In this document: piece after piece, positions 10,033-24,800 of the stretch
Position numbering within the stretch: position 1 is the first letter of the stretch
Layout of the letters: each line of letters starts with the position of its first letter
Source of the DNA: Yamagishiella unicocca
Lineage: Eukaryota > Chlorophyta > Chlorophyceae > Chlamydomonadales > Volvocaceae
DNA: 64,000 nt
Direction of reading: 5' to 3'
Assembly (NCBI GenBank): GCA_003116995.1
Contig: BDSL01000099.1
Coordinates: 62,001 to 126,000 of the forward strand
Notes under the pieces: generated by a model
The model's database searches: none
The model's input: only the letters and a program-made list of their open reading frames with translations
What the model was told of the DNA's origin: nothing
Translations under genes and position numbers: made by a program

Positions 10033-11396
10033 TCATGCATCGCCCTGAAAGTCGAAAACGGCGCACATCATGCCGTAGTAGGACGGGTGCCCGTACTCCA
10101 ACAGCACGCTGTGCATGTTATCGGGCTTCACGCCGTCCATCAGCCCCTGCAGCAATACTAGCCCCGGAAAGCCGCATGATTTCGCTTCGCCCACGCTTTT
10201 GGCAGCCGTCTTGAGCAGCGCGTTGCGGTCCAGGTCATGGGCCCACTGCTGCACCGCGGTGTCAAATCGAGCCGCGTGCTCACTGTAGCCATAGGGCCCT
10301 GCCGGATCCCACGTGTGCGCCAGGTCGCCGCTGACCACGACAGCGATCCGGTCGTCCAGCGCATCCAGATGCGTGAAGAGGCTCTTCCCCAGCGCCAGCA
10401 GCTCAGGAATCATGCTGACGCTGTGTTCGTATCGGCTGGAAGGCATGCTGAGGATGATAAGGCGCGGCAGGCCCGAGGTGGCGATGGTAGAGGACTGAGC
10501 GCCATTTTCGCCTCCGCCGCCGCCGCCGCGGTCGAATGTCTGAGCGCTCAACCTCCGCCGATGTTGCAGGCTGTGCTGTTTTCCTGAGATGGGCTGCTCG
10601 CTGCTGACGGCCGACCCAGAGTACGCGCGCTCGAGGAAATACAACGGTATGACCTCGGCCCATCCCAGAGGCAGAGGAAGCGTGCCCTCGCCGGGCGGGC
10701 CGAAGCCTGAGAGTGACATGACGTTGTTCCCGTGGGCCGCCAGCGCCGTTTCGAGCTGCTTGGTGAGGTGCACGTCTAGCTTTGTGCTAGCATTGTAGAC
10801 GCAGGGCTGGAAAGAACAAGGCAGCCACGCGTCCACAGACACGCTGCCCGCTGTAGCGGCACAGGATGCAGGTTGCGCGCGCGAGGTACCAAAGGGTCAA
10901 GGAGCTGTCAAAGTGGTTGTGGAGGGCGTCGGAGGGTGAGTCGGCGTGTACGGCAGAGCCGCGGATGGGGCCGCCGGTGTTTGGGAGGGGCTCCGCGAGC
11001 GCAATATGTCAAGAAGCAGACCGTCGCAAATGCCAGCTCGCACGTCGTACTGCACCATAGACAAATTCACCGCAAAAGAAGCGCGATGGCCATGCACGAA
11101 CCTGCATTTGGGTTGTTGTAGAGCACGTACGTCTGCGGAAGCGCGAGCCCATGTGGCGTCACGAGGAGCACAACCTCGGCCTCAAGACTTTGGATGAAGC
11201 TACCAGCGTTCAAAGCCGCGTAGTGCAAAGCCATCGCTGCATCTGTGGCATTGTCCGAGCCATTAAAGTTCCGTGGATCCAGCGTAAGCGCGCCATGATG
11301 CATTACTGCCCCACCCACAATGTATGCAACAACATATGGACAAACGCACGCAAAAGCCACTATGCACAGGAGCGTGCAACTTTGTGACGCCGCCAT
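10033..11396 (-). CDS. LigB-type class III extradiol dioxygenase-like protein
   Basis: Two exons, 11396-11102 and 10850-10033, join in phase 1 (donor GTTCGT, acceptor ctacag) to give a 370-residue protein. The ATG at 11396 opens a hydrophobic segment of about 20 residues that looks like a signal peptide or anchor. Then come features of the LigB superfamily (PF02900): a VMHHGAL segment with candidate metal-binding histidines, VVLLVTPHG, an NNPNAAGS segment spanning the splice site, VVVSGDLAHTWDPAGPYGY with a third candidate ligand, and a C-terminal GHPSYYGMM. The family includes ring-cleaving non-haem iron enzymes and zinc DOPA dioxygenases, but algal members are mostly uncharacterised, so substrate and activity are unknown. 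A low-complexity insert (residues about 160-190, with a Gly run) interrupts the domain. Splice agreement makes the model strong. Confidence 0.8.
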
Positions 11397-12291: not shown

Positions 12292-15200
12292 CTAGTCCGA
12301 CTGCCCCGCCCACAGCCCCAGCGCACACGCCAATACGAAGTAGGTCGCGTACCAAGCCCGCGCGAACACGTAAAACCGTTCCGGCAGCGACCCGCGGTTC
12401 ATCAGCCCCGCCGCCGCCACCGCCGCGTTATACACCACCAAGAACACGCAGCCCAGCGCCACCTCAGGCCGCAGCACCACGTTCGCGTGGCTGACGTGGC
12501 GCCTCGCAAAGTACGACCCGAAGCCCAGCGCCATGGATGCCAGCATGTTGAACAGCGGCCCCGCAAAGCAGGCGGTGAGTGCCATGGTGGGCTGGCCCCG
12601 GCGAGCCATGGCCGGGTTACCGAAAAAGTCCCCCAGGCTGTTCCCCCACGCCAGCAAGGTGAGCCCCATGACGGAGGCGGGCATGTGGAGCAGGCTGGCC
12701 AGCAGCGAGATGACCCCCACCACCTCGGAGGCGAGGGTGTCGATCCAGATGATCCCCATGAAGAAGCCAAACACGGCAAAGGCCGCGGGACCGAAGGCGA
12801 AGCTGGTGCCAAAGTCCCAGTCAGGCAAGGCGTCGTCTTCGCCGGCGGTGAAATAGCCCACAGCCGCCGCCAGACATGCGCCCGCGGCCAGGGCTATCAG
12901 TGCGGCTAGGAAGGAGCCGGGGGTCAGGTAGGCGGCGGCCAGCAGGGGCGCGCCGATGCAGGTGGCGACGAGCCAGCGGCGGCTGTAGGTGGCCGGGTCC
13001 ACGAAGGGGATGGTGAAGCGCAGGGCGGCGTAGACGGGCAGCAGCAGCGGGAAGGTCACTGCGCGCCAGCGGCGGCGGATGCTGTTCGCGGGCATCTCCT
13101 CCCACTCGCCGCTGGTGCCTGAGCCCAGGGATGGGCCGCCGGGGCAAGGCAGGCGTGGCGGCGCCGGCGTTAAGGCACGGATGAGGGTGGAGTCGGCGCA
13201 GCCGGTATGGCGCGGCGGAGTATGCGCGCTGGCGGAGTGGCAGGAGGGTAAGGCGTGGGCGGCTCCCCCAGCAAGCATTCGGAGGGAGGAGGCAGTGCGT
13301 AAGGGGCCCCCGCAACACACAGCGACAACCAACCGACCCTGGATCCGGCCGTACGAAACCTACCAACGGTAAGCTCGTAGCGAACTTTTCCCCACAGCCC
13401 GCGTGACACCGCCGTCCGCCGCGAGGACGCCACTGACGCAGCGTCGCCGTCGCCGCCCACGCTGCCGCCGCCAGCGTCACGCCGGTGGCTGTGCGCCTCC
13501 AGCAGACCCTCCTCCTCCTCGTCGCTGTCGTCGTACTCCTCCCCAGAGCCCTCACCGTCCCATGGAGCGAGCGACAGCCCGGGCGCCAATCGTCCGGCAG
13601 GTGCTGCCGTCGCCGCCTTGCCAGACGTCATATCGGCCGCCGCCGCCACGGCGCCAGCTGCCTCCGGGGTGGCGATCATCGCGGCGGCAGCAGCGGCGGC
13701 GCTGGTCGCCCCCGCCGGCGCTGCGTCGACTGGGACGGGCGCCGCCAGTGCCGACCCGTTCAGTGAGGACAGCGTCACCAGCTGCGAGCCGCCGGCAGCA
13801 GCTGCGTCGCTGGCGCCAGAAGTCGGAGGCGGCAGCGGTGGCGCACGGTAAGCTGCGGGGATGGGAGCGAGGAAGTTGTCCAGGGCGGGGCAGTGAGGGC
13901 AGTTAGTCCAAATGCTGTGTTCGTGTCAGCGCCTCAGCGCCTCAGCGCCTCAGAGCCGCGGGGTCACTGCACGTAACCCCGTCTCTGCATTCGTTGCCCT
14001 GCCCCCACTCTCCCTACAACAGCAGTAGCCCATAACCAGCCTAAGCCTCAATGGCGACCCACATCACCGGCCCGGCCTCACTCACCCGCCCCCTCGCCAC
14101 CCACACCGGACGCGCCCAGCTCCAGGCTCGACACCAGCGGTGCCGCGCCCCGCCCTCGCCGCCCGCTGCCGTGGGACCGCCGGGAGCGGCGGCGCAGCCC
14201 TCCAGCCGCCCCCTCGTCACCCGCCCTCCGCGGCAGCACGGGCTCCTCCTCCCTACTCAGGTCCGCCCACACCATGTTCTGGTAGGCCTTGGCGCTCATT
14301 AGGTGGTGCCGGTGGGGCTGCTGGTGCGGTTGCCGGGCGGCGGGGGAAGCGGGACGGCTGGTGATGCCGCCGCCCTCACTCAGCTCCGCGGCCGTGTCCA
14401 CCAGCGGCGCGGTCAGCTCGCCGGCCCTCCCCCTGGTCAGGCGGGCGAGCAGGGGTTCCGGCAGGCGCAGGGCGCGGCAGAGTGCGGGGCGGAGGGGTCC
14501 GGTTGGCGGTTGGCGGTTGGGGACAGCAGCAACGGACTCGGGGCAGACGGGCAGGTGGGGAGTGTTCAGCTGCCCGATGTCAGTGCTGAAAGTGGTGATC
14601 AGGTCTCGCCGGCTTTGGCTACCGGGCAGAAACTGAATCGTGTGGTGCGAAAGTCCCTCCCTGGGGTAGCACCGGCCCTCGAGGGGTCTCCAGGGAGGGT
14701 GTCACTCACCTGCCGGCAGCTCCACCCGGCCCCACGTCAACCTGGGCCCAGGGCAGCAGGTTCTCGGCCTCGCGCCCCCACCGGGAGCTGAACCTGAAGG
14801 GGAGGGGAGGGTGGCAAGGAAATCCCGTGTACGAAAGAAAACCATTTAGAACGGAAGGAGAGGGGAGGGGAGGGCGAGTGATAGCCCGGGCGAAGCCCCG
14901 ACACGGCTGTCGTTGCAACAGCGCCCATCGGACGGACGCCATTCACGGCGTGAGCTCAGCGGAGGTGTGGCTTCCCGGCCGGGCTGGCTGGCTGGCACAG
15001 ATGCACTCCGCCATGGACCCGCGGGTCTCGATGCCGTCGACGACCCCCAAGGTAAACACCTGCCGAGCTTCATAGGGCACCCGGACATCTGTGCCCTAAC
15101 GATAGTGCCGTACCCGGAGCAGCCGACTGCAGAGCGAAGGACTGCCTTGCCGGCTGCCAGCTCTCTACGCTGCGCCACGCGCGCTGTAACATGGCCTTCC

Positions 15201-18002
15201 CTGGAGCATCCCGAGGGGCTGCTACCCCATGAACACCACTGCTTCTTCGCCGGTCATCCCGCCCCCCCGCCCGCCCTGTATCCACCCTCCCACCCTGTAC
15301 TCCCCCTGCACTCCCCTCTCCCCCCTGCACTCCCCTCTCCCCTTCACCCCCCCTCTCCCGCACCTGCCCGACACCGATGACCTGAAGTCCCTCCACAGTG
15401 TGACAGCCTCGGGGCGCCCCCGCTCGTGCCACTCGTCGCCCACAAACACCCACACGGCGTACGACAGGTACAGCAGTACGGCACCCGCGATGAACCAGTA
15501 CGTAATCTGCGGGCCACGGGCACAAGGGGGCCCCCCGGCAGCGGCAGGACGAGGTTCGCGACCGTACTAGGTGCAGAGGACCCGCACTCCCACCACCGCC
15601 GCCACCCCCACTGCCTCCAGCGGTCGCTCTCTCCTGCCCTGCCTTACGGCTGACCCCCTACTCCCGCCGCCTCGTGCTGTCGCACCCTGCCGCCCACCTG
15701 CCACCCACCCTGCCACACACCCTGCCACCCACCCTGCCGCCCACCCTGCCGCCCACCCTGCCGCCCACCCTGCCACCCACCCTGCCGCCCACCCTTCCGC
15801 CCACCCTGCCACCCACCCTTCCGTGCGCGAACGCCGCCAGCACCATGAGGATGCTGGCGACGTAGATGGCCACATCCCGCAGGGTAGCGCCCCGACACTT
15901 GACGGTGCCCCTGCGCATAAAGAGAGAGGAGGGGAGGGGGAGGGAGAGAGGCGGGGAGGGCAGGGCGGGCAAGCGGAGGGAGGCGGATAGAGCGAGGGCG
16001 AGGGTGCCGGCTCCACACCATGGAAGCTGCAGACCCGCAGTCCTCCTGGCATTTCACACTCGCTGGCACCACCCGGTGGTTCGCAGCTGATGCCCGAGAG
16101 ACCACCACCACCGACACCACCACTGCACCTGCACCTGAGGCGCACGATGTCTGCCGCCGTTCGCCGCCCCTCCCCCCGGCCCGATACCCCAGACCCCCGC
16201 CCACCTGGACGCCCTCATCACCTCCGACGCCACCACGCACTGCACGAACATGGCGGCGCCTGCCGCAGCCGCACCGGGGGGAGGGTGCTGTCAGCCGGTG
16301 CCGTACCACCCGGTGGTGGCTGCACCCACAGATCTAACCACAGATCTAACTGCATCCGTGTTGGCGACCATTTGTTGCGGCAATCGGGTGCATGGGATTT
16401 GGAGCGAGGGCAGGCGATCCAAACTGCTCGTCTGTCTGGTCTGGTCCGGCACCCCATCCGCCCGTGTTCAGAGCCGCAGGCAATAACATATATCAACCTG
16501 ACACAGCCCGGTTCGCGCCCCCAGCCACTCACCCGTCAGTGCCCCGGCGGATAGCAGGACGTCTCCGTTGCGGATGGCGGTGATGTTTGCGGACAGGTCG
16601 GTGGCGCCGTTGCCCATGGCCACGAAGGTGACTGGCGGGAGCCGGCGAGCCCGGCAGGGCAAGTGGCACACGGCAGGGCAGGGCAAGTGGCACACGGCAG
16701 GGCAGGGCAAGTGGCACACGGCAGGGCAGGGCAAGTGGCACACGGCAGGGCAGGGCAAGTGGCACACGGCAGGGCAGGGCAAGTGGCACACGGCAGGGCA
16801 GGGCAAGTGGCACACGGCAGGGCAGGGCAAGTGGCACACGGCAGGGCAGGGCAAGTGGCACACGGCAGGGCAGGGCAAGTGGCACACGGCAGGGCAGGGC
16901 AAGTGGCACACGGCAGGGCAGGGCAAGTGGCACACGGCAGGGCAGGGCAAGCGGCACACGGCAGGGCAGGGCAAGTGGCACACGGCAGGGCAGGGCAAGT
17001 GGCACACGGCAGGGCAGGGCAAGTGGCACACGGCAGGGCAGGGCAAGTGGCACCAGGTGCGCGGGAGGTCCTCAGCGACGCGGCTGGTGCTGTGACTCTG
17101 CCCAGGCGAGCCTGGCGATCAACACGAGGATCATGGTGGCTGTGTTGCGGTCGCTTCTGGGTTGCGTTGCGCGTGGGATCCGGTCTGAAGGCCGCGGCTA
17201 GGCCGGTCAGCTGCGCCGTTAGGTCAGCAAGAGGAGGCCAAGAGCCAGGACGCGCCGCATGGCTATGTTGTGACGTCCTGCCTGCGCAAGCTTCATCGGA
17301 CCACACCAGCACCGTCGCCCCATGCCCCAGGCATGCGCGTCTACTGCTCATCAACTGACCAATCACCAACCGCCACGGCAACTGCCCACCGACCTCCTGC
17401 GAACCTCGGCCGCATCTTTGGGATGCTCTGCGACACGTGCGTCATGATGGGTGAGAAGTAGATCTCCGCCGTGTCGCCCAGCAGTGTGAAGTACAAAGGC
17501 AGCAGCGCGGCCAGCAGCAACTGGAGAGAAGACCGGGGGAGACAGGGGCTGTGTGAGTTGAGGACAAGTACATGGATTGGGCTACAGCAATGGGGTGTAT
17601 GTGCTCCCAACCGCGCGAGAGCGCAGGGAAGGCATCAGTCCCCACGGCTCCAGGGGTGGCTATTAGCTGCTGAGGCCACCAGCTGCAGCGCATCGCGGCG
17701 GCGGCCATTGTCTCCCAACTGTGTGGCGGAAAACCATCCGCATCATCGTCCTCATGGCCACCGCGTTGTGTCGGTGTTGGTGTTGGTGGTGGTGGCGGTG
17801 GTGGTGGTGGCAGTGGTGGTGGTGGTAGTGGTGGAGGGGAGCAACGCACCGTAAAGCAGAAGCTGGGCAGACCTCCATGAGGAGCCACATGGCAGTAGTA
17901 CCACTGGGTATAGGGAATTAGGCTATCGGCCTCACAGCTCTCGAGGACAAAGCTGCACCGCTGCTCAGCGGGCACTTTGTCCAGGCGGTCACAGGCATAT
18001 GG
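12292..18002 (-). CDS. Cation/calcium exchanger (CCX/NCKX type)
   Basis: Ten exons with agreeing phases on the minus strand: 18002-17850, 17520-17394, 16631-16533, 16259-16205, 15910-15817, 15506-15364, 14793-14710, 14585-14107, 13852-13364 and 13118-12292, encoding at least 849 residues. A first exon with the ATG lies upstream and is unresolved; an ATG at 18237 in good context is a candidate. The N-terminus has the family's Cys-rich lumenal segment (CSFVLESCEAD...YTQWYYCH). The alpha-1 repeat is VTFVAMGNGATDLSANITA and the alpha-2 repeat is GLTLLAWGNSLGDFFGNPA followed by a TACFAGPLFNML helix. These carry the acidic/Asn residues that bind cations in Ca2+/cation antiporters. Between the two membrane halves is a long hydrophilic loop (exons G-I, about 350 residues, Ala/Gly/Asp/Glu-rich), longer than in plant CCX proteins. 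It probably exchanges Na+/K+/H+ for Ca2+ at an internal or plasma membrane; ion preference cannot be read from sequence. Two introns are filled with minisatellites. Confidence 0.88.
15684..15823. repeat. 12-bp tandem repeat in exchanger intron
   Basis: About 11 imperfect copies of CCCACCCTGCCG fill most of the intron between exchanger exons 15910-15817 and 15506-15364. The repeat begins at the donor edge, so the splice site GTGGGT is itself part of the array. Confidence 0.9.
16661..17053. repeat. 24-bp minisatellite, 16 copies, in exchanger intron
   Basis: Sixteen full units plus a 9-nt partial of AAGTGGCACACGGCAGGGCAGGGC. Units are nearly identical; one carries AAGCGG at 16949. Because 24 is a multiple of 3, all six frames stay open, producing spurious long frames. 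The array sits wholly inside the intron between exons 17520-17394 and 16631-16533. Confidence 0.97.
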
Positions 18003-18622
18003 CTGCGGTTGGGGGTCGGACTGCAGCTGCCCCGTCGGGGTTTAGGGCGAGGGGTGGGGTGGGGCCGGGCCGCGATTAGGGAGTCGAGGGTGACGAGCGG
18101 TTTACAGCTGTCATAAGCGGTGCAGTCGGTCGGTGTGCCTCGTGCCTCGTTGACGATTTAGAATGCCGCGCCACGTGGTTACCATGGCGATCGGGAGGAG
18201 CAATCGGGGAAATCCACAAGGTGGCGGAGCAATCCATGGCTTACCGCCGGGGCTTCGCTGGTGGGCCGCGCCGCTACACTGAGAGCAGCTGACACTATAA
18301 GCAAGCGTGCGAGAGGGTTAATCATTAGTTTCGCGAGCGTTAAAGCCCGTCCAGGAAGCTAGGCGGACATTGCCCTCGGCGTTGGGCTTGTTGGTTCACG
18401 CCACGATTAAATGACCCTGCTAAAATGATTCGTAATGTGGGTACTATGGCCAATCCAACTACCGAAGCGGTCCAAAATTATACATAGACACGGGTCCAAC
18501 GAGCAGCGACACGGCAGATTGGACCGACAGGGCGCATGGGGCGCCCTGGTATCAAGCCGAGTAACTGCTGCGTTAATATATGTATGTGTATAATTATATT
18601 TTTACAATCCAGTTAAGCACGG
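18003..18622. promoter_or_regulatory. Divergent intergenic region between the exchanger and REX1 genes
   Basis: About 600 bp separate the exchanger (minus) from REX1-S (plus), including the exchanger's unresolved first exon. An AT-rich block at about 18572-18604, just before the REX1-S ATG, is a candidate core promoter for the REX1 transcript. No named motif could be identified. Confidence 0.4.
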
Positions 18623-18995
18623 ATGGTTTCTGCTAAGAAGGGAACGCTGCTCCGCTGGTGAGCTCCGACACCTGCACTCTTGGGGCACGATGCTTATAAC
18701 TAAATCACAATACAATACATACGCAGTGATGTGCCTACAAAGGTTTATGTAGTCCACTTGAATAGCCAGTACAAGGCGGAAGGGTGAGTACCCCAGAAAG
18801 CAGTTATACTGTAACGCTAGCAGCTGACACGGAGGGTTGGTGCTATTCAGGAAGAAAGAATTCATTATAGCTGATCTGGATGAGCAGACTCTGCTCATCA
18901 ACCCATCGCATCTAGACGAGATCCGCGCTGCGCTCAAGAAGTACAGCGACGGGCTTAATTTCGAGCCCACGGACAAGGTTCAGGCGCAGCAATAA
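18623..18995 (+). CDS. REX1-S: TFB5/TTDA-like TFIIH subunit, REX1-S
   Basis: Three exons, 18623-18657, 18727-18783 and 18851-18995, splice in phase 2 twice to give a 78-residue protein. It starts MVSAKKGTLLRCDVPTK, continues with FIIADLDEQTLLINPS and ends in an amphipathic helix (LDEIRAALKKY) and a short acidic tail. This matches the small TFIIH subunit Tfb5 of yeast and TTDA/GTF2H5 of humans: KG.L..CD..., (I/L)xxLDxxxLL(V/I)NPS, then a C-terminal helix, at about 72 residues. The protein stabilises the core of TFIIH for nucleotide excision repair. In C. reinhardtii the REX1 locus (required for excision) is described as encoding a small protein of this kind together with REX1-B. The stop is followed after only 45 nt by the REX1-B ATG, with no room for another promoter. 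Confidence 0.88.
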
Positions 18996-19040
18996 AGGGT
19001 ATTACCCAGCGGAGCTGTCTTCAAGCAGCGGCAGGCAGGC

Positions 19041-20765
19041 ATGGCGGCCACCGACGTCCCAACGGCGCTTCGCGCCTTTCTAGAGGTTCAGAGCTGCCGA
19101 GCCCAGCTGTACACACGTTTTCATGATGGTTTTAAGGCATTCCTGAGGACAAAGTAAGCGCTGGGTCCTGTGGAACAAGGCCTGAGGACGGGCCCACGGG
19201 ACTGCGCCATCGATTTGCAGGGGAGTGATGGAAAAATCCACCCCAGTGAGCGTCTGTTGACGTTATGGTGGTATGCATAATGTAGGTACGACGTCCAGTA
19301 CAAAAGTCTTATGGCGGAGCTGACGGCATCCTTCACCGAATGCTCTAGGAGGGTTAACGCAATTGAGGTGGGTTTCCTTATTGCAGCACTAGTGCTATTG
19401 GTTAATGCCGCACCCCCCGTACAGATGTGGCTCGCTGCCATTAGAAGACTCTTCATTGGCAGATGACAGCCCGAGATAAGCTTCCGCACGCAATCGCTTC
19501 TGTGCTAAACGGTGCACCTGCATTTTATGGGAACGAGCACGCTCACATGACCCGCAATGCACATATGGCCAGCTCAGGGGACTTAATGGCCGCCATCGCA
19601 AAATCGTCGACACGTGCCGTTGCGCACCGTGTGCCACGTAATCCTGTACGCCGCGTCGCCATACCCGGCTGCAGGCAACCCTGAAGGACCTGGGGCGATC
19701 AGATCTGGGAGCAATTCTGCGGGAAATCCAGGTACGGCAGCAGCCAGTTGGCGGGCGAAGATGCGCTTCCGTGTTTCCTGTAAGCGACCTTCTCCTGAGC
19801 TAGCCTGCAATAGTGTCGACATGCGTTGCTGCCGACCCAGATGCCACGTCACCTGCCGCTGAAACCCAATCGTCATGCGCAGAATTCGGAGCGCGACAAG
19901 CTCCGGTTGACGCTGTCACTCCAGGCGCTGAAGCAGGCCGCGGCATTCCGGACTTTCAGCTGGCAGCAGCCTGGTAAGGACGGCGCCCCCGCCTTTGACG
20001 ACGACGAGGCGCTGGCCCTGCTTGACCCTCAGCTCGCGTCCGCCGCGCTCCACCACGCGCACGGACACTCCCACACGCATGCGGAACCCCACGGCACTGC
20101 GGCGGCCACGTCAGCCGGAGGTGGAGCAGGAGGGCAAGAGTTGGAGCCAGAGCTGGGTGAGGAGGAGCCACGTGTAGGTTCTGACAGCGGTGAAGACGCG
20201 GCGCCGAAGGCAAACGGCTGTGGGTCGCCAGGCAGTGCTGGAGCCTCGCACGGTGCGCGGCACGACAGTCATGTGCGGCCGCCGCCCGTTGCCGGCGCTG
20301 CCAGCATTGACCCCAGCAGCAAGTCGGACGAACACGGCCACACCAATGGCCATGCAAATGGCGGTGGTCATGGAGGCAGCTGCGGGTGTGGTGTTGTCGG
20401 CGGGACTCCTGAGCCCTCGCGCCGCGAGTACGAGGCCGCCGTCAAGGAGGCTATGCAGGTGGGGCGGGCACTGCTGCCGCGGTGGCGTGTCCCCGACTGC
20501 GTGCTGTGCGATCCTAGCTATTGCGAGGCCGTTAAGCAAACCTTGATGTTGATTATGGGGCGTATTAGTTGATTTAGGCAGTGTGGAAACGATGGTACAT
20601 CCGAACACATGCGCCGTTGAGCGTCCAGGGTGCAAGGAACTGCGTCCCTCGGCTCCTATCATGTATCACGGGGGACGTCAGCGCCTGCCCGCTTGATGCC
20701 CCTCACCCTACCTTCAGGCGCTGGACGCTTGCATTCGGAGTATCAACGATGCCATAGGCAAGTGA
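19041..20765 (+). CDS. REX1-B: REX1-B, DNA excision repair protein
   Basis: Five exons, 19041-19153, 19286-19367, 19675-19731, 19883-20458 and 20718-20765, with agreeing phases, give 291 residues, close to the size I recall for C. reinhardtii REX1-B. The conserved REX1B domain is an alpha-helical bundle. It is recognisable as RAFLEVQSCRAQLYTRFHDG, then a helix ending RRVNAIE, then LGRSDLGAILREIQ, then SERDKLRLTLSLQALKQA, and a short C-terminal exon (ALDACIRSINDAIGK) that ends the helix started by YEAAVKEAMQ. Exon 4 also codes for a His/Gly/Glu-rich low-complexity insert of about 150 residues. The protein is linked genetically to repair of UV damage; biochemical activity is not known. It lies 45 nt downstream of REX1-S, so it is probably translated from the same mRNA. 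Confidence 0.87.
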
Positions 20766-20886
20766 CGCGGTTGGCATCACAGCCATGCAGATGTGCCTTG
20801 CTTGCAACAGCAAAGATTGGGCTTCGACTAGCATTCGGGGGAAGGAGCTGAAAGTTGGGTGACCTTAAGAGCTATACCCGAAATAT

Positions 20887-20891
20887 TGTAA
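20887..20891 (+). terminator. TGTAA polyadenylation signal of the REX1 transcript
   Basis: TGTAA lies 122 nt after the REX1-B stop. No comparable signal lies between the REX1-S stop and the REX1-B start, in line with one shared mRNA. Confidence 0.55.
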
Positions 20892-21868
20892 TCTAGCCAA
20901 AAGCTAAATGCATTTGGTCGGGGGTTGGATCACCTGCTGTCTTTGTCGAACGCCTCATGCCTCTGCCTCTACTGCAAGCCTTCCTTGCCTGGTTACCCAC
21001 CGTGTCGCATATGATGCGGGGGGATCATCCATGTGCAGGTAATTCCCTGCGACTTCGCTTGCCTGAGGCGAACATGCGCCAATAATTGCTATGCAGGTGA
21101 CCTTCGTATGGAACTAGAGGATGATTAGGCTCACGAGCACCGCAACGTGCTATTCTGCTGTCGCCCTATGCTGACGTGCTGTCGGCCAGATCTGTTGGCG
21201 CATTGTACCGATGCACTGTAGTTATGTCCTAGCGTGATCCAAACGGGGAATATTTAGGTGCCCTCGGCTGACGTGGTCACACATGAGTCAGGCACACAGT
21301 GCCAGGTGCATGTACCGGTACGTGGAATGCTGCTATGTTTTTTTGTAACAGTATGCATTGTAAGGCCGTTTGTGCATTCGATGTTGTGCAAAGAAGTTTC
21401 TGCTCGGCTTCCTTGAACGAACAGCCCGTGACGATCGGGCTCCATCGTGAGCAACGAGCTTCCTAGAGCGCAGGTCCTTATATTGCTGGGGATTTGGTTA
21501 GATAGTTCCTGCTTACCTGCGCCGTCCTGCCTCCTGCGCCGTCGCCCATAAATTTCGTCCAATGCCGTACTTGACTCAGAGATACTCAAGCAGCATTTCG
21601 CTAGTGATAATATTTTGTATTGCATATGCTAACCGTAAAACGTATGTCTCAATTTTGCATTTAAACTTACCGGTATCTCACGCTTACCTGTATCCCAGTT
21701 GTTCAACAGAGGTATAGATTTTCTGCAACCTCTTTACTACCAAGCAGTTCGTTAGTGCAAGGTGCGTCTGAGGCAGGGTCACTGAGCTGGGTCACCTTCG
21801 ACGTATCGTTGGTCCGTCCTTCCGCCGGCTTCCACAGTTGCGACGAGTACTCTCTTTGCAGCCTCAAT
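20892..21868. other. Intergenic, 5' region of ornithine decarboxylase
   Basis: No coding exon was recognised. The part nearest 21869 should hold the ODC promoter and 5' UTR; no specific element identified. Confidence 0.45.
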
Positions 21869-24800
21869 ATGACGCCCATGGAGGTTCTCTTGCCAACTAC
21901 GTCTCTGGTGCCGGAAGAGCTGGCACCGGTGGTTGCCGGCCCGGGCCAGTCCCCGTCTCAGCCGTCCAGGCCTACCGACGCGGAGTCGACCGTTGAAAAT
22001 GGCGACTTCCCGTCGTTTGCCCATCAAGCACCTTCGTCGTCTCGATCGTGCCGGGGTGACGTCGGAAGGACTAGTGTGAGCATATTGGTTTGGGTTTCGG
22101 CATGCGGCGCGACGGGCAGGTCATATTTACGCCTTTAGGTACGAAATGAGGAAACCTGTCGTAACGGATGTCTGCAAGACGATTTGTTTTGCTGAAAAGG
22201 TCAAAGAAGCCCCAGCGTGCAGCTGTTAAAAGGTCAAAGAAGCCCCACCGTTTGCGGCACATTTTCGTGGCTTTGGTTTCATGTCCATAGGAGCCTTTGT
22301 GACAGGTAGCAAATAGTAACAGTCCGGGGCCGCGACTGAGGTCGGGACCGCGAAGTGTTCGATAACACTGCTGCGCGGGTGTTGCGGGCAAGGCGAGGGG
22401 AGCATAAACTGGGTCATTGTGCCCTTTACGCAACCACAACCTCCCATAACACATCGCAACAGACCGGCTTTTGCACGCGCTGCCCCGGTACTTTGACATC
22501 TGAATCTGGGTCACGTCGCACGCTCAGACTGCCGCCATCATCGCCGTCCCCCCCCTCCCTCCACAGATTGGCCACCACGCCAGCGGCTGCCTGCAGGACC
22601 TCAAAGCGGAGGCCGATGTCAAAACTGCGCTGGCGGCTGCACTGCAGCCGATGGATCGTGGCCCTGCAGCCGCGGTACCCGCTGCTGCTGCGGCTGCGGC
22701 AGGGACGCCGGGTAGCACTGCGGCCGCTGCAGTGGACGTGTCTCGGGCGCTGCTGTCCAGCTGGCAGTACCGGGCTACCGGCAAGGCCGCGGTGGCGCAG
22801 GTGCTCACGGATGTGGGTTGCGAGCACCTCAAGTCGGGGGGCCCGAGGGCGATCCAGGAGGTGGTCGTCCGCCACATCCTGCGCCACGACGTCGACAGCG
22901 ATAGCATCTACTGCGTCGACCTGGCGGCACCCTTCCGTCTGTTCAAGGTGCGGCCGGCTCTCCTCCAAAAAGGATGACCGGAAGGGGCCGCTTTGTCTTG
23001 TTTGGGCTCGCGGGCAAGGCATGAGGGGTGGACGACCCCTCCCTCCCTCGCGGTGCTGCGGCACCGATAACGTCCGCTAGTATCCTATCTTCTTAGCCTC
23101 CGCTCCGTCTCCTTGCCGCGCCGCACCGTGGAACCACCACCTTCACCGCCCTCGGTTTGTCGGCCGTAGATTCGCGGAATCTCTTATAAAACCTCCACTG
23201 GGAGTCGGGAGCCAACATACCCTGTCGCGCCTCACGTATCACCCCCACCCCGCGGCACTCCCCGCCGTAACCAGGCCTGGCGCGCCGCCATGCCACGCGT
23301 CTTGCCGTACTACGCCGTCAAGTGCTACCCGGAGCCGGCCATCCTCAAGCTGCTCATCGCGCTGGGCGCTGGGTTTGACTGCGCCAGCAAGGGCGAGCTG
23401 GACATGATGCTTAAGATGGGCGTGGCGCCTTCACGCATCATCTTCGCGCACCCCTGCAAGCGCGCCTGCGACTTCCGCTACGCACGGGAGCACGGTATCC
23501 AGTACACCACGGTGGGTGGGAGCAGGCGCCGGCGCAGCAGTGCCTCGGTTGGTTGGTCTCCAACCGATACCCACACACTCACAACCGCCCGCTGGCCTGC
23601 GCTGCGGCCATTTCCGGGTCTGCGTGGCATGGCACTGACCCGGCCCACAACACTGCCGTTTTACGTTACAGTTCGACACCATCTCCGAGCTGCACAAGAT
23701 CGCAGAGATGGACCCGGAGTTCAAGCTGGTGCTCCGGATCCGCGCTGACGACCCGGGAGCACGCGTGCCGTTGGGTCTCAAGTACGGCGCCGAGGTTTCG
23801 GAGGCGCCGGGGCTGCTGCGCGCGGCCAAGGAGCTGGGCCTGGATTGCTGCGGCGTGAGCTTCCACGTGGGGAGCGCCGCAAAGAACCTTGCGACGTTCA
23901 CAAACGCCATCGAGAACGCGCGCAAGGTGCGAGGGAGGCGAGCGGCGGGGCTGAGGGCAGGGACGGGGACCACCTCAGCTCGCGGTTGGTTTGAGGATTG
24001 AGATGGTGACAAGACGAATGGCAGGCTACAAAAATGCGTATTGCTGTGACTACCTTTGCAAGGCGATGGTAGGGTGCCGGCGCTGCCAGCTCCTCCCACC
24101 CTGGCCAAATGCCCTCCAGGAGCGTGTCTCCTAACACCTGTAGCTGCCACACAGCATCCACCACGCATCGGACAATAGCCTGAATGCCCTCCTCGCCCTG
24201 CCGACCGACCCACTCTCTGCCCCACTGGCCGCCACGATCCCCCAGGTGTTTGACGAGGCAGCGACGCTGGGCTACCGGATGGAGCTGCTAGACATTGGCG
24301 GCGGCTTCACCGGCCACTTCGACGAGATGGGCAACGTCATCTTTGGCGAGATCGCCAACACCATCAACGCCGCGCTGGCCACCTACTTCACGCCGGGCAC
24401 CGAGCTGGGCGATGTGCGCGTCATCGCCGAGCCGGGCCGCTACTTCGCCGAGTCCAGCTCCACGCTGCTGACGCCCGTGATCGGGCAGCGCGACCGGGTG
24501 GCCAAGGACGGCTCCATCCACAAGGACTACTGGCTGACGGATGGCCTGTACGGCTCCTTCAACTGGTGAGCCCGCAGGTCGTGCGTGGAGCACCCGGATG
24601 GGTCGGTTTGCCGCGCACCGCATTTCCTGCTCCACGCATCTCCCCTTGGGCTATTGGTGGCCCGACTCACTGTTACCCCTCCGCTCTTGCTTCCCCCAAC
24701 CCCCAGCATCGTGTACGACGGCCAGACCCCTGAGTACCGCATCGTGCGCTCCCCCGTCCTGCCGGAGCCCACCGACACGCGGCCCTTCGTCTCAACGCTG

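What the first reader, a model, noticed from the sequence alone, without database searches (positions are those of the whole stretch)
18623..20765. REX1-S and REX1-B read like one dicistronic mRNA
A complete TFB5/TTDA-like gene ends at 18995 and REX1-B starts at 19041, 45 nt later on the same strand. There is no TGTAA or promoter-like DNA between them, and one TGTAA follows REX1-B. The C. reinhardtii REX1 locus is known for encoding two such proteins. Keeping the order and the tiny gap here supports a conserved eukaryotic dicistron, which raises the question of how the second frame is translated. I saw no ATG in the 45-nt spacer.
Basis: partly seen in the sequence, partly recalled or inferred. 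Interest (0 to 1): 0.8.

Follow-up and report, generated by a model that had tools for sequence, protein, structure and literature searches.

The report
Known two-gene algal message, REX1-S/REX1-B
Two DNA-repair genes of a green alga sit 45 bases apart and are very probably read from one messenger RNA; this pairing, and a likely translation trick for such pairs (ribosomes slipping past the first start), are already described in related algae, so the locus is a conserved known case rather than a new one.

Summary
The pair is real. REX1-S (TFB5/TTDA family) has exons 18623-18657, 18727-18783 and 18851-18995. A 45-nt spacer without ATG follows, and REX1-B starts at 19041 on the same strand. Each gene was found at one locus only in this genome, and the three other published algal bicistrons that I looked for are colinear here. 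But the REX1S-REX1B bicistron is already published: a bicistronic mRNA in Chlamydomonas reinhardtii and a 14-nt spacer in Auxenochlorella protothecoides, with leaky scanning supported by mutants at other bicistrons and a reporter (PMC11892635). The TGTAA at 20887 is intronic; the first after the corrected stop are at 21344 and 21359. Start contexts fit leaky scanning (ORF1 -3 C, ORF2 -3 G). Against it, ORF1 keeps three internal AUGs and is not AUG-depleted by codon-aware nulls. A 45-mer without ATG or TGTAA is what chance gives. The spacer is also in frame and open, so read-through is not excluded here, though the 14-nt spacer elsewhere argues against it. Verdict: conserved and already known; the corrected gene model is the main gain.

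The parts
18623..18657 (+). REX1-S (TFB5/TTDA family) exon 1; start codon context CACGG-ATG-G, -3 is C
18727..18783 (+). REX1-S exon 2 (57 nt, so its loss would keep the frame; two of the three internal AUGs go with it)
18851..18995 (+). REX1-S exon 3 with stop TAA (18993-18995)
18996..19040 (+). inter-ORF spacer, 45 nt, no ATG, no stop in the frame shared by both ORFs
19041..19153 (+). REX1-B exon 1; start context CAGGC-ATG-G, -3 is G
19286..19367 (+). REX1-B exon 2
19675..19731 (+). REX1-B exon 3
19883..20458 (+). REX1-B exon 4 (end of the REX1-B domain and the variable His/Gly-rich middle)
20718..20757 (+). REX1-B exon 5, ends at a GC donor (AG|GCAAGT)
20758..21096 (+).
21097..21128 (+). 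REX1-B exon 6, conserved C-terminus DLRMELEDD and stop TAG
21344..21363 (+). two TGTAA motifs (21344, 21359), the first after the corrected REX1-B stop; possible poly(A) signal (role of TGTAA in these algae is recalled)

Best explanation
This is the volvocine ortholog of the known green-algal REX1S_REX1B bicistronic gene. One promoter before 18623 and one poly(A) site, probably near 21344-21380, make one spliced mRNA with two separate ORFs: the TFIIH subunit TFB5/REX1-S and then REX1-B (inferred from orthology; not shown here by RNA). Scanning pre-initiation complexes initiate at the weak REX1-S AUG (-3 C); some pass it and the internal AUGs and initiate at the better REX1-B AUG (-3 G, +4 G). 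That is leaky scanning, inferred from start contexts and from published mutants of other algal bicistrons. Some reinitiation after the very short ORFs inside REX1-S may add to it.
For: Both proteins belong to the expected families. Order, strand and a 45-nt gap are as in published bicistrons. Each gene was found at one locus only in the 133-Mb assembly (searched exon by exon, best candidates scored). In Volvox carteri, REX1-S (P0001) and REX1-B (P0007) are each listed on a contig of length 1,516,489, which suggests linkage. Three other published bicistron pairs were looked for and all three are colinear here: OST4-FAM32A, 36-nt spacer; TOM22-SDHAF3, 61-nt spacer; a CDC26-like frame 477 nt before the ATG of a TTM3-like gene (start to start). 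ORF1 -3 C against ORF2 -3 G. REX1-B ATG lines up with P0004. No TGTAA in the 1182-nt spliced stretch from REX1-S start to REX1-B stop (0.64 expected by composition in a 1268-nt version with the older model, so weak). In print: bicistronic mRNA in C. reinhardtii; leaky scanning supported in vivo at TOM22 and OST4 loci and by a synthetic reporter with the REX1 spacer (PMC11892635).
Against: No RNA or ribosome data for this species. Published bicistrons are AUG-poor before ORF2; here REX1-S plus spacer has 3 internal AUGs against 4.46 expected by base composition but 1.54, 2.33 or 2.84 under three codon-aware nulls, P(<=3) 0.96, 0.93 and 0.70: no depletion. One internal AUG, 37 nt after the A of the REX1-S AUG, has a purine at -3. 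ATGs at 18536, 18580 and 18584 could interfere if the 5' UTR reaches them; the one at 18580 opens a frame that overlaps the REX1-S start. The control OST4 start has G at -3, not a clearly weak context. The Kozak judgement rests on two positions, not on a matrix from this genome. The CDC26 profile gave no hit.
Confidence: 0.78

Rival explanations
1. One mRNA, but REX1-B is made mainly by reinitiation: ribosomes translate REX1-S, or a 7- or 11-codon ORF inside it, stay on the mRNA, rescan and start at 19041.
For: The internal AUG 37 nt after the REX1-S A opens a 7-codon ORF whose stop codon begins 224 nt before the REX1-B AUG; the one at 121 nt opens an 11-codon ORF whose stop begins 128 nt before it. 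Short ORFs favour reinitiation (stated in PMC11892635). Its authors do not exclude some reinitiation.
Against: In A. protothecoides a stronger ORF1 context lowers ORF2 output, and removing the ORF1 start raises it: opposite to reinitiation after ORF1. A 78-codon ORF1 with a 45-nt gap is a poor reinitiation substrate (general knowledge).
Confidence: 0.13
2. Read-through of the REX1-S TAA gives a REX1-S/REX1-B fusion, because the 45-nt spacer is in frame and open.
For: After the TAA the frame reads RVLPSGAVFKQRQAG and then the REX1-B Met, no stop. The OST4-FAM32A spacer in this genome is also in frame and open.
Against: Chance of in-frame and open is about 0.20 (0.587 x 1/3). TOM22 and SDHAF3 here are in different frames (61-nt spacer). 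The A. protothecoides REX1 spacer is 14 nt, out of frame. TAA is usually the tightest stop (general knowledge). A search with both proteins joined (residues 1-190 scored, using the older REX1-B model) listed 8 proteins at E<=0.001; for each of them PF14966 is the only precomputed Pfam domain, so none shows as a fusion.
Confidence: 0.03
3. Two ordinary genes: REX1-B has its own promoter inside REX1-S and its own transcript.
For: No RNA data here; promoters inside genes exist.
Against: A 45-nt gap, against a published median of 3,415 nt between colinear monocistronic genes of C. reinhardtii; published Iso-Seq work describes such algal loci as exclusively polycistronic; published colinearity of this pair.
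Confidence: 0.05
4. The spacer acts as an internal ribosome entry site.
For: None found.
Against: 45 nt; 18960-19060 folds no better than shuffles (z +1.18; 182 of 200 shuffles fold at least as well); no Rfam match at gathering score in 17500-22500; published mutants argue against it (PMC11291117 passage).
Confidence: 0.01

Closest known systems
REX1S_REX1B bicistronic locus of Chlamydomonas reinhardtii and Auxenochlorella protothecoides (PMC11892635; Cenkci et al. 2003 as cited there)
   Same: same two-gene naming and order, short spacer, short ORF1 before longer ORF2
   Different: spacer 45 nt here against 14 nt in A. protothecoides, and in frame here; no RNA or ribosome evidence here; sequences of those two loci were not compared (not held)
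Other conserved algal bicistrons OST4_FAM32A, TOM22_SDHAF3, CDC26_TTM3
   Same: small ORF1 before a longer ORF2; all three pairs colinear in this genome
   Different: unrelated proteins
Human GTF2H5 (TTDA/p8), yeast Tfb5, and human REX1BD
   Same: REX1-S matches solved Tfb5/GTF2H5 chains; REX1-B has PF14966, the REX1-B domain (that human REX1BD carries it is recalled)
   Different: I saw no report of these two as a bicistron outside green algae in the listings; most listed papers were not opened

Membership tests
Green-algal REX1S_REX1B bicistron | ORF1 is a TFB5/TTDA-family protein | tested here: met
   PF06331 74.4 bits, cut-off 23.5; Tfb5 chains in the PDB
Green-algal REX1S_REX1B bicistron | ORF2 is a REX1-B-domain protein | tested here: met
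   PF14966 99.5 bits, cut-off 24; alignment with 8 of the 10 relatives found (P0009, which lacks the N-terminus, and P0011, without the domain, left out)
Green-algal REX1S_REX1B bicistron | colinear, same strand, short inter-ORF | tested here: met
   45 nt; published medians 183 nt (C. reinhardtii) and 40 nt (A. protothecoides)
Green-algal REX1S_REX1B bicistron | exclusively polycistronic mature mRNA | not testable with these tools
   no RNA data for this species
Green-algal REX1S_REX1B bicistron | both ORFs translated | not testable with these tools
   no ribosome profiling or peptides; only conservation of both proteins
Leaky-scanning bicistron | weak ORF1 start context, better ORF2 context | tested here: met
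   -3 C against -3 G, both +4 G, judged by the consensus stated in PMC11892635; no matrix from this genome
Leaky-scanning bicistron | AUG depletion before ORF2 | tested here: inconclusive
   3 observed; 4.46 expected by composition, but 1.54-2.84 by codon-aware nulls: no depletion seen. One locus has little power, and the 5' UTR was not included
Leaky-scanning bicistron | short 5' UTR | not testable with these tools
   transcription start unknown; the 60 nt before the ATG are 30% GC

The most novel reading that the evidence does not exclude
The dicistron persisted for hundreds of millions of years because it ties a TFIIH repair subunit (REX1-S) to a partner of the proteasome lid (the human REX1-B relative REX1BD is reported to bind the 19S lid), so that one leaky start sets the ratio of nucleotide-excision repair to proteasome action.
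Probability: 0.1. Interest if true: 0.6.

Novelty: already known. Interest (0 to 1): 0.2.

Why it matters
It adds one more species to a deeply conserved eukaryotic dicistron and gives a corrected model of REX1-B. If the pairing reflects function, it points to a link between TFIIH repair and the proteasome lid (PMC12222714, one passage) that could be tested in the Chlamydomonas rex1 mutant. It is also a case where leaky scanning would have to work although ORF1 is not poor in AUGs by a codon-aware count.

Tried and rejected
The absence of ATG and TGTAA in the spacer was considered as evidence and dropped: 57% and 98% of sampled window 45-mers lack them. An alternative last splice (donor GT at 20762, acceptor ending at 20831, tail NIRGKELKVG) was listed by the same script and rejected because the GC-AG choice gives the relatives' C-terminus; that listing kept only tails matching a motif that I had set from those relatives, so it is a guided choice, not a blind one. 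A structured or IRES-like spacer was rejected. The 291-aa model with the TGA at 20765, used, was replaced by the 299-aa model. In one search only the 7999 candidates sharing most words were scored, so REX1-B relatives, C. reinhardtii's among them, may be missing. The CDC26 family search found nothing, yet a CDC26-like frame (label recalled) is readable before one of two CYTH matches (L010; the other, L011, showed none to my eye). The LYR family used for SDHAF3 (equation recalled) had three matches, of which only the one on C17 lies beside the single Tom22 match. A recalled OST4 motif found nothing; the Pfam profile then did. Cenkci 2003 and Gallaher 2021 are not held, so I know them only through citing papers and recall. 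Of PMC5144980, PMC4192114 and PMC4140758 I saw passages only, mostly citations of Cenkci. One search prints the OST4-FAM32A spacer as 37 nt because my start index was one base early; one search gives 36. A paper search including the S. pombe name C4H3.06 (relative in PDB 8j0h) listed 3 papers, none with that name.

Full report
What is there. On the + strand, REX1-S has three exons (18623-18657, 18727-18783, 18851-18995) with two GT-AG introns and encodes 78 aa (8.8 kDa). It matches Pfam Tfb5 (PF06331, E 7.3e-21), solved yeast Tfb5 and human GTF2H5 chains, and a Volvox carteri protein at 86% identity (P0001). A 45-nt spacer (18996-19040) without ATG follows, then REX1-B from 19041 (PF14966, E 1.6e-28; starts like Pleodorina P0004). 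The window lies in a 133-Mb assembly of 1415 contigs.

Correction of the gene model. Of the two splice choices listed, the one from a GC donor at 20758 (AG|GCAAGT) to an acceptor ending at 21096 adds an exon, 21097-21128, giving ...INDAIGDLRMELEDD, 299 aa, 31.3 kDa. Relatives end alike: P0004 DVRIELEDS, P0005 DLRVELDDEE, P0006 EIRMELEDS, P0008 ELRYELEDA, P0009 EIRMELEDN. Not alike: P0007 (V. carteri, a partial model) and P0011 end differently, and P0010, P0012 and P0013 are looser. The TGTAA at 20887 is therefore intronic; the first after the corrected stop are at 21344 and 21359, 216 and 231 nt downstream. Of three + strand ORFs scanned further down, one has a Pfam match, an ornithine-decarboxylase-type domain in 23170-23748.

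Is it more than chance? Absence of ATG or TGTAA in 45 nt is not remarkable (57% and 98% of sampled window 45-mers). The pairing of these two families is: each was found at a single locus in the assembly, and the same pairing is published as a bicistron in C. reinhardtii and A. protothecoides. As a control on the genome, I looked for three other published bicistrons and found all three pairs colinear. OST4 and FAM32A lie on contig C35 with a 36-nt spacer. TOM22 and SDHAF3 lie on C17 with a 61-nt spacer, in different frames. On C122 a CDC26-like frame starts 477 nt before an ATG that, spliced to the CYTH match, reads MEVEIKIRLP; CDC26 there is my reading, since its profile gave no hit.

How it works. 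From PMC11892635 I saw the abstract and outline, part 1 of 4 of the Results, sections 8 and 13 and passages. It reports for algal bicistrons weak ORF1 contexts, few AUGs before ORF2, and in vivo mutants in which a stronger ORF1 context lowers ORF2 output. Here the ORF1 start has C at -3 and the ORF2 start G at -3, both with G at +4, as the model asks. Against it, REX1-S has three internal AUGs: 0.67 of the composition expectation (3 of 4.46), but above all three codon-aware means (1.54, 2.33, 2.84). Their ORFs are 7, 1 and 11 codons long; the last stop codon begins 128 nt before the REX1-B AUG, so reinitiation after them could help. ATGs at 18536, 18580 and 18584 would matter only if the 5' UTR reaches them (only 18500-18625 was looked at). 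The control OST4 start has G at -3, so not each known bicistron of this genome shows an obviously weak first start.

Read-through. The spacer is in frame with both ORFs and has no stop; the chance of this is about 0.20. The OST4-FAM32A spacer here is also in frame and open, TOM22-SDHAF3 is not in frame, and the A. protothecoides REX1 spacer is 14 nt. I hold read-through at 3%. The spacer region is not unusually structured (z +1.18).

Exon 2. REX1-S exon 2 is 57 nt. The annotated Gonium protein P0003 (59 aa) has exactly the length that this locus would give without exon 2 (45 of 59 residues identical). Skipping would also remove two of the three internal AUGs. Whether this is real splicing or an annotation slip cannot be told here.

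Function. REX1-S is a TFIIH subunit by family. In PMC12222714 (one passage) the human protein REX1BD is reported as a 19S proteasome lid interactor; that it is the REX1-B relative is recalled. The two together suggest, but do not show, a repair-proteasome link.

Verdict. Interest 0.2.

Noticed in passing
window 20758-21096: REX1-B has a GC-AG intron with an in-frame TGA just after its donor; a model that ends at that TGA is 8 residues shorter. The partial V. carteri model P0007 also departs from the relatives' C-terminus there.
   Followed up: partly
window 18727-18783: REX1-S exon 2 is 57 nt and skippable in frame; the annotated Gonium protein P0003 has exactly the skipped length (59 aa). Skipping would remove two internal AUGs.
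   Followed up: partly
L004 (G000:C35:687389-687610, - strand): OST4-FAM32A pair with a 36-nt spacer that is also in frame and open.
   Followed up: partly
window 16653-17053: Tandem array of 16.7 copies of a 24-nt unit, 99% matches; open in several frames on both strands, which gives long ORFs of repeats.
   Followed up: partly
window 23170-23748: ORF with an ornithine/arginine decarboxylase pyridoxal-binding domain (PF02784, E 9.3e-28).
   Followed up: no
window 12292-13359 and 10033-10896, - strand: Sodium/calcium exchanger domain (PF01699) and a LigB dioxygenase domain (PF02900).
   Followed up: no
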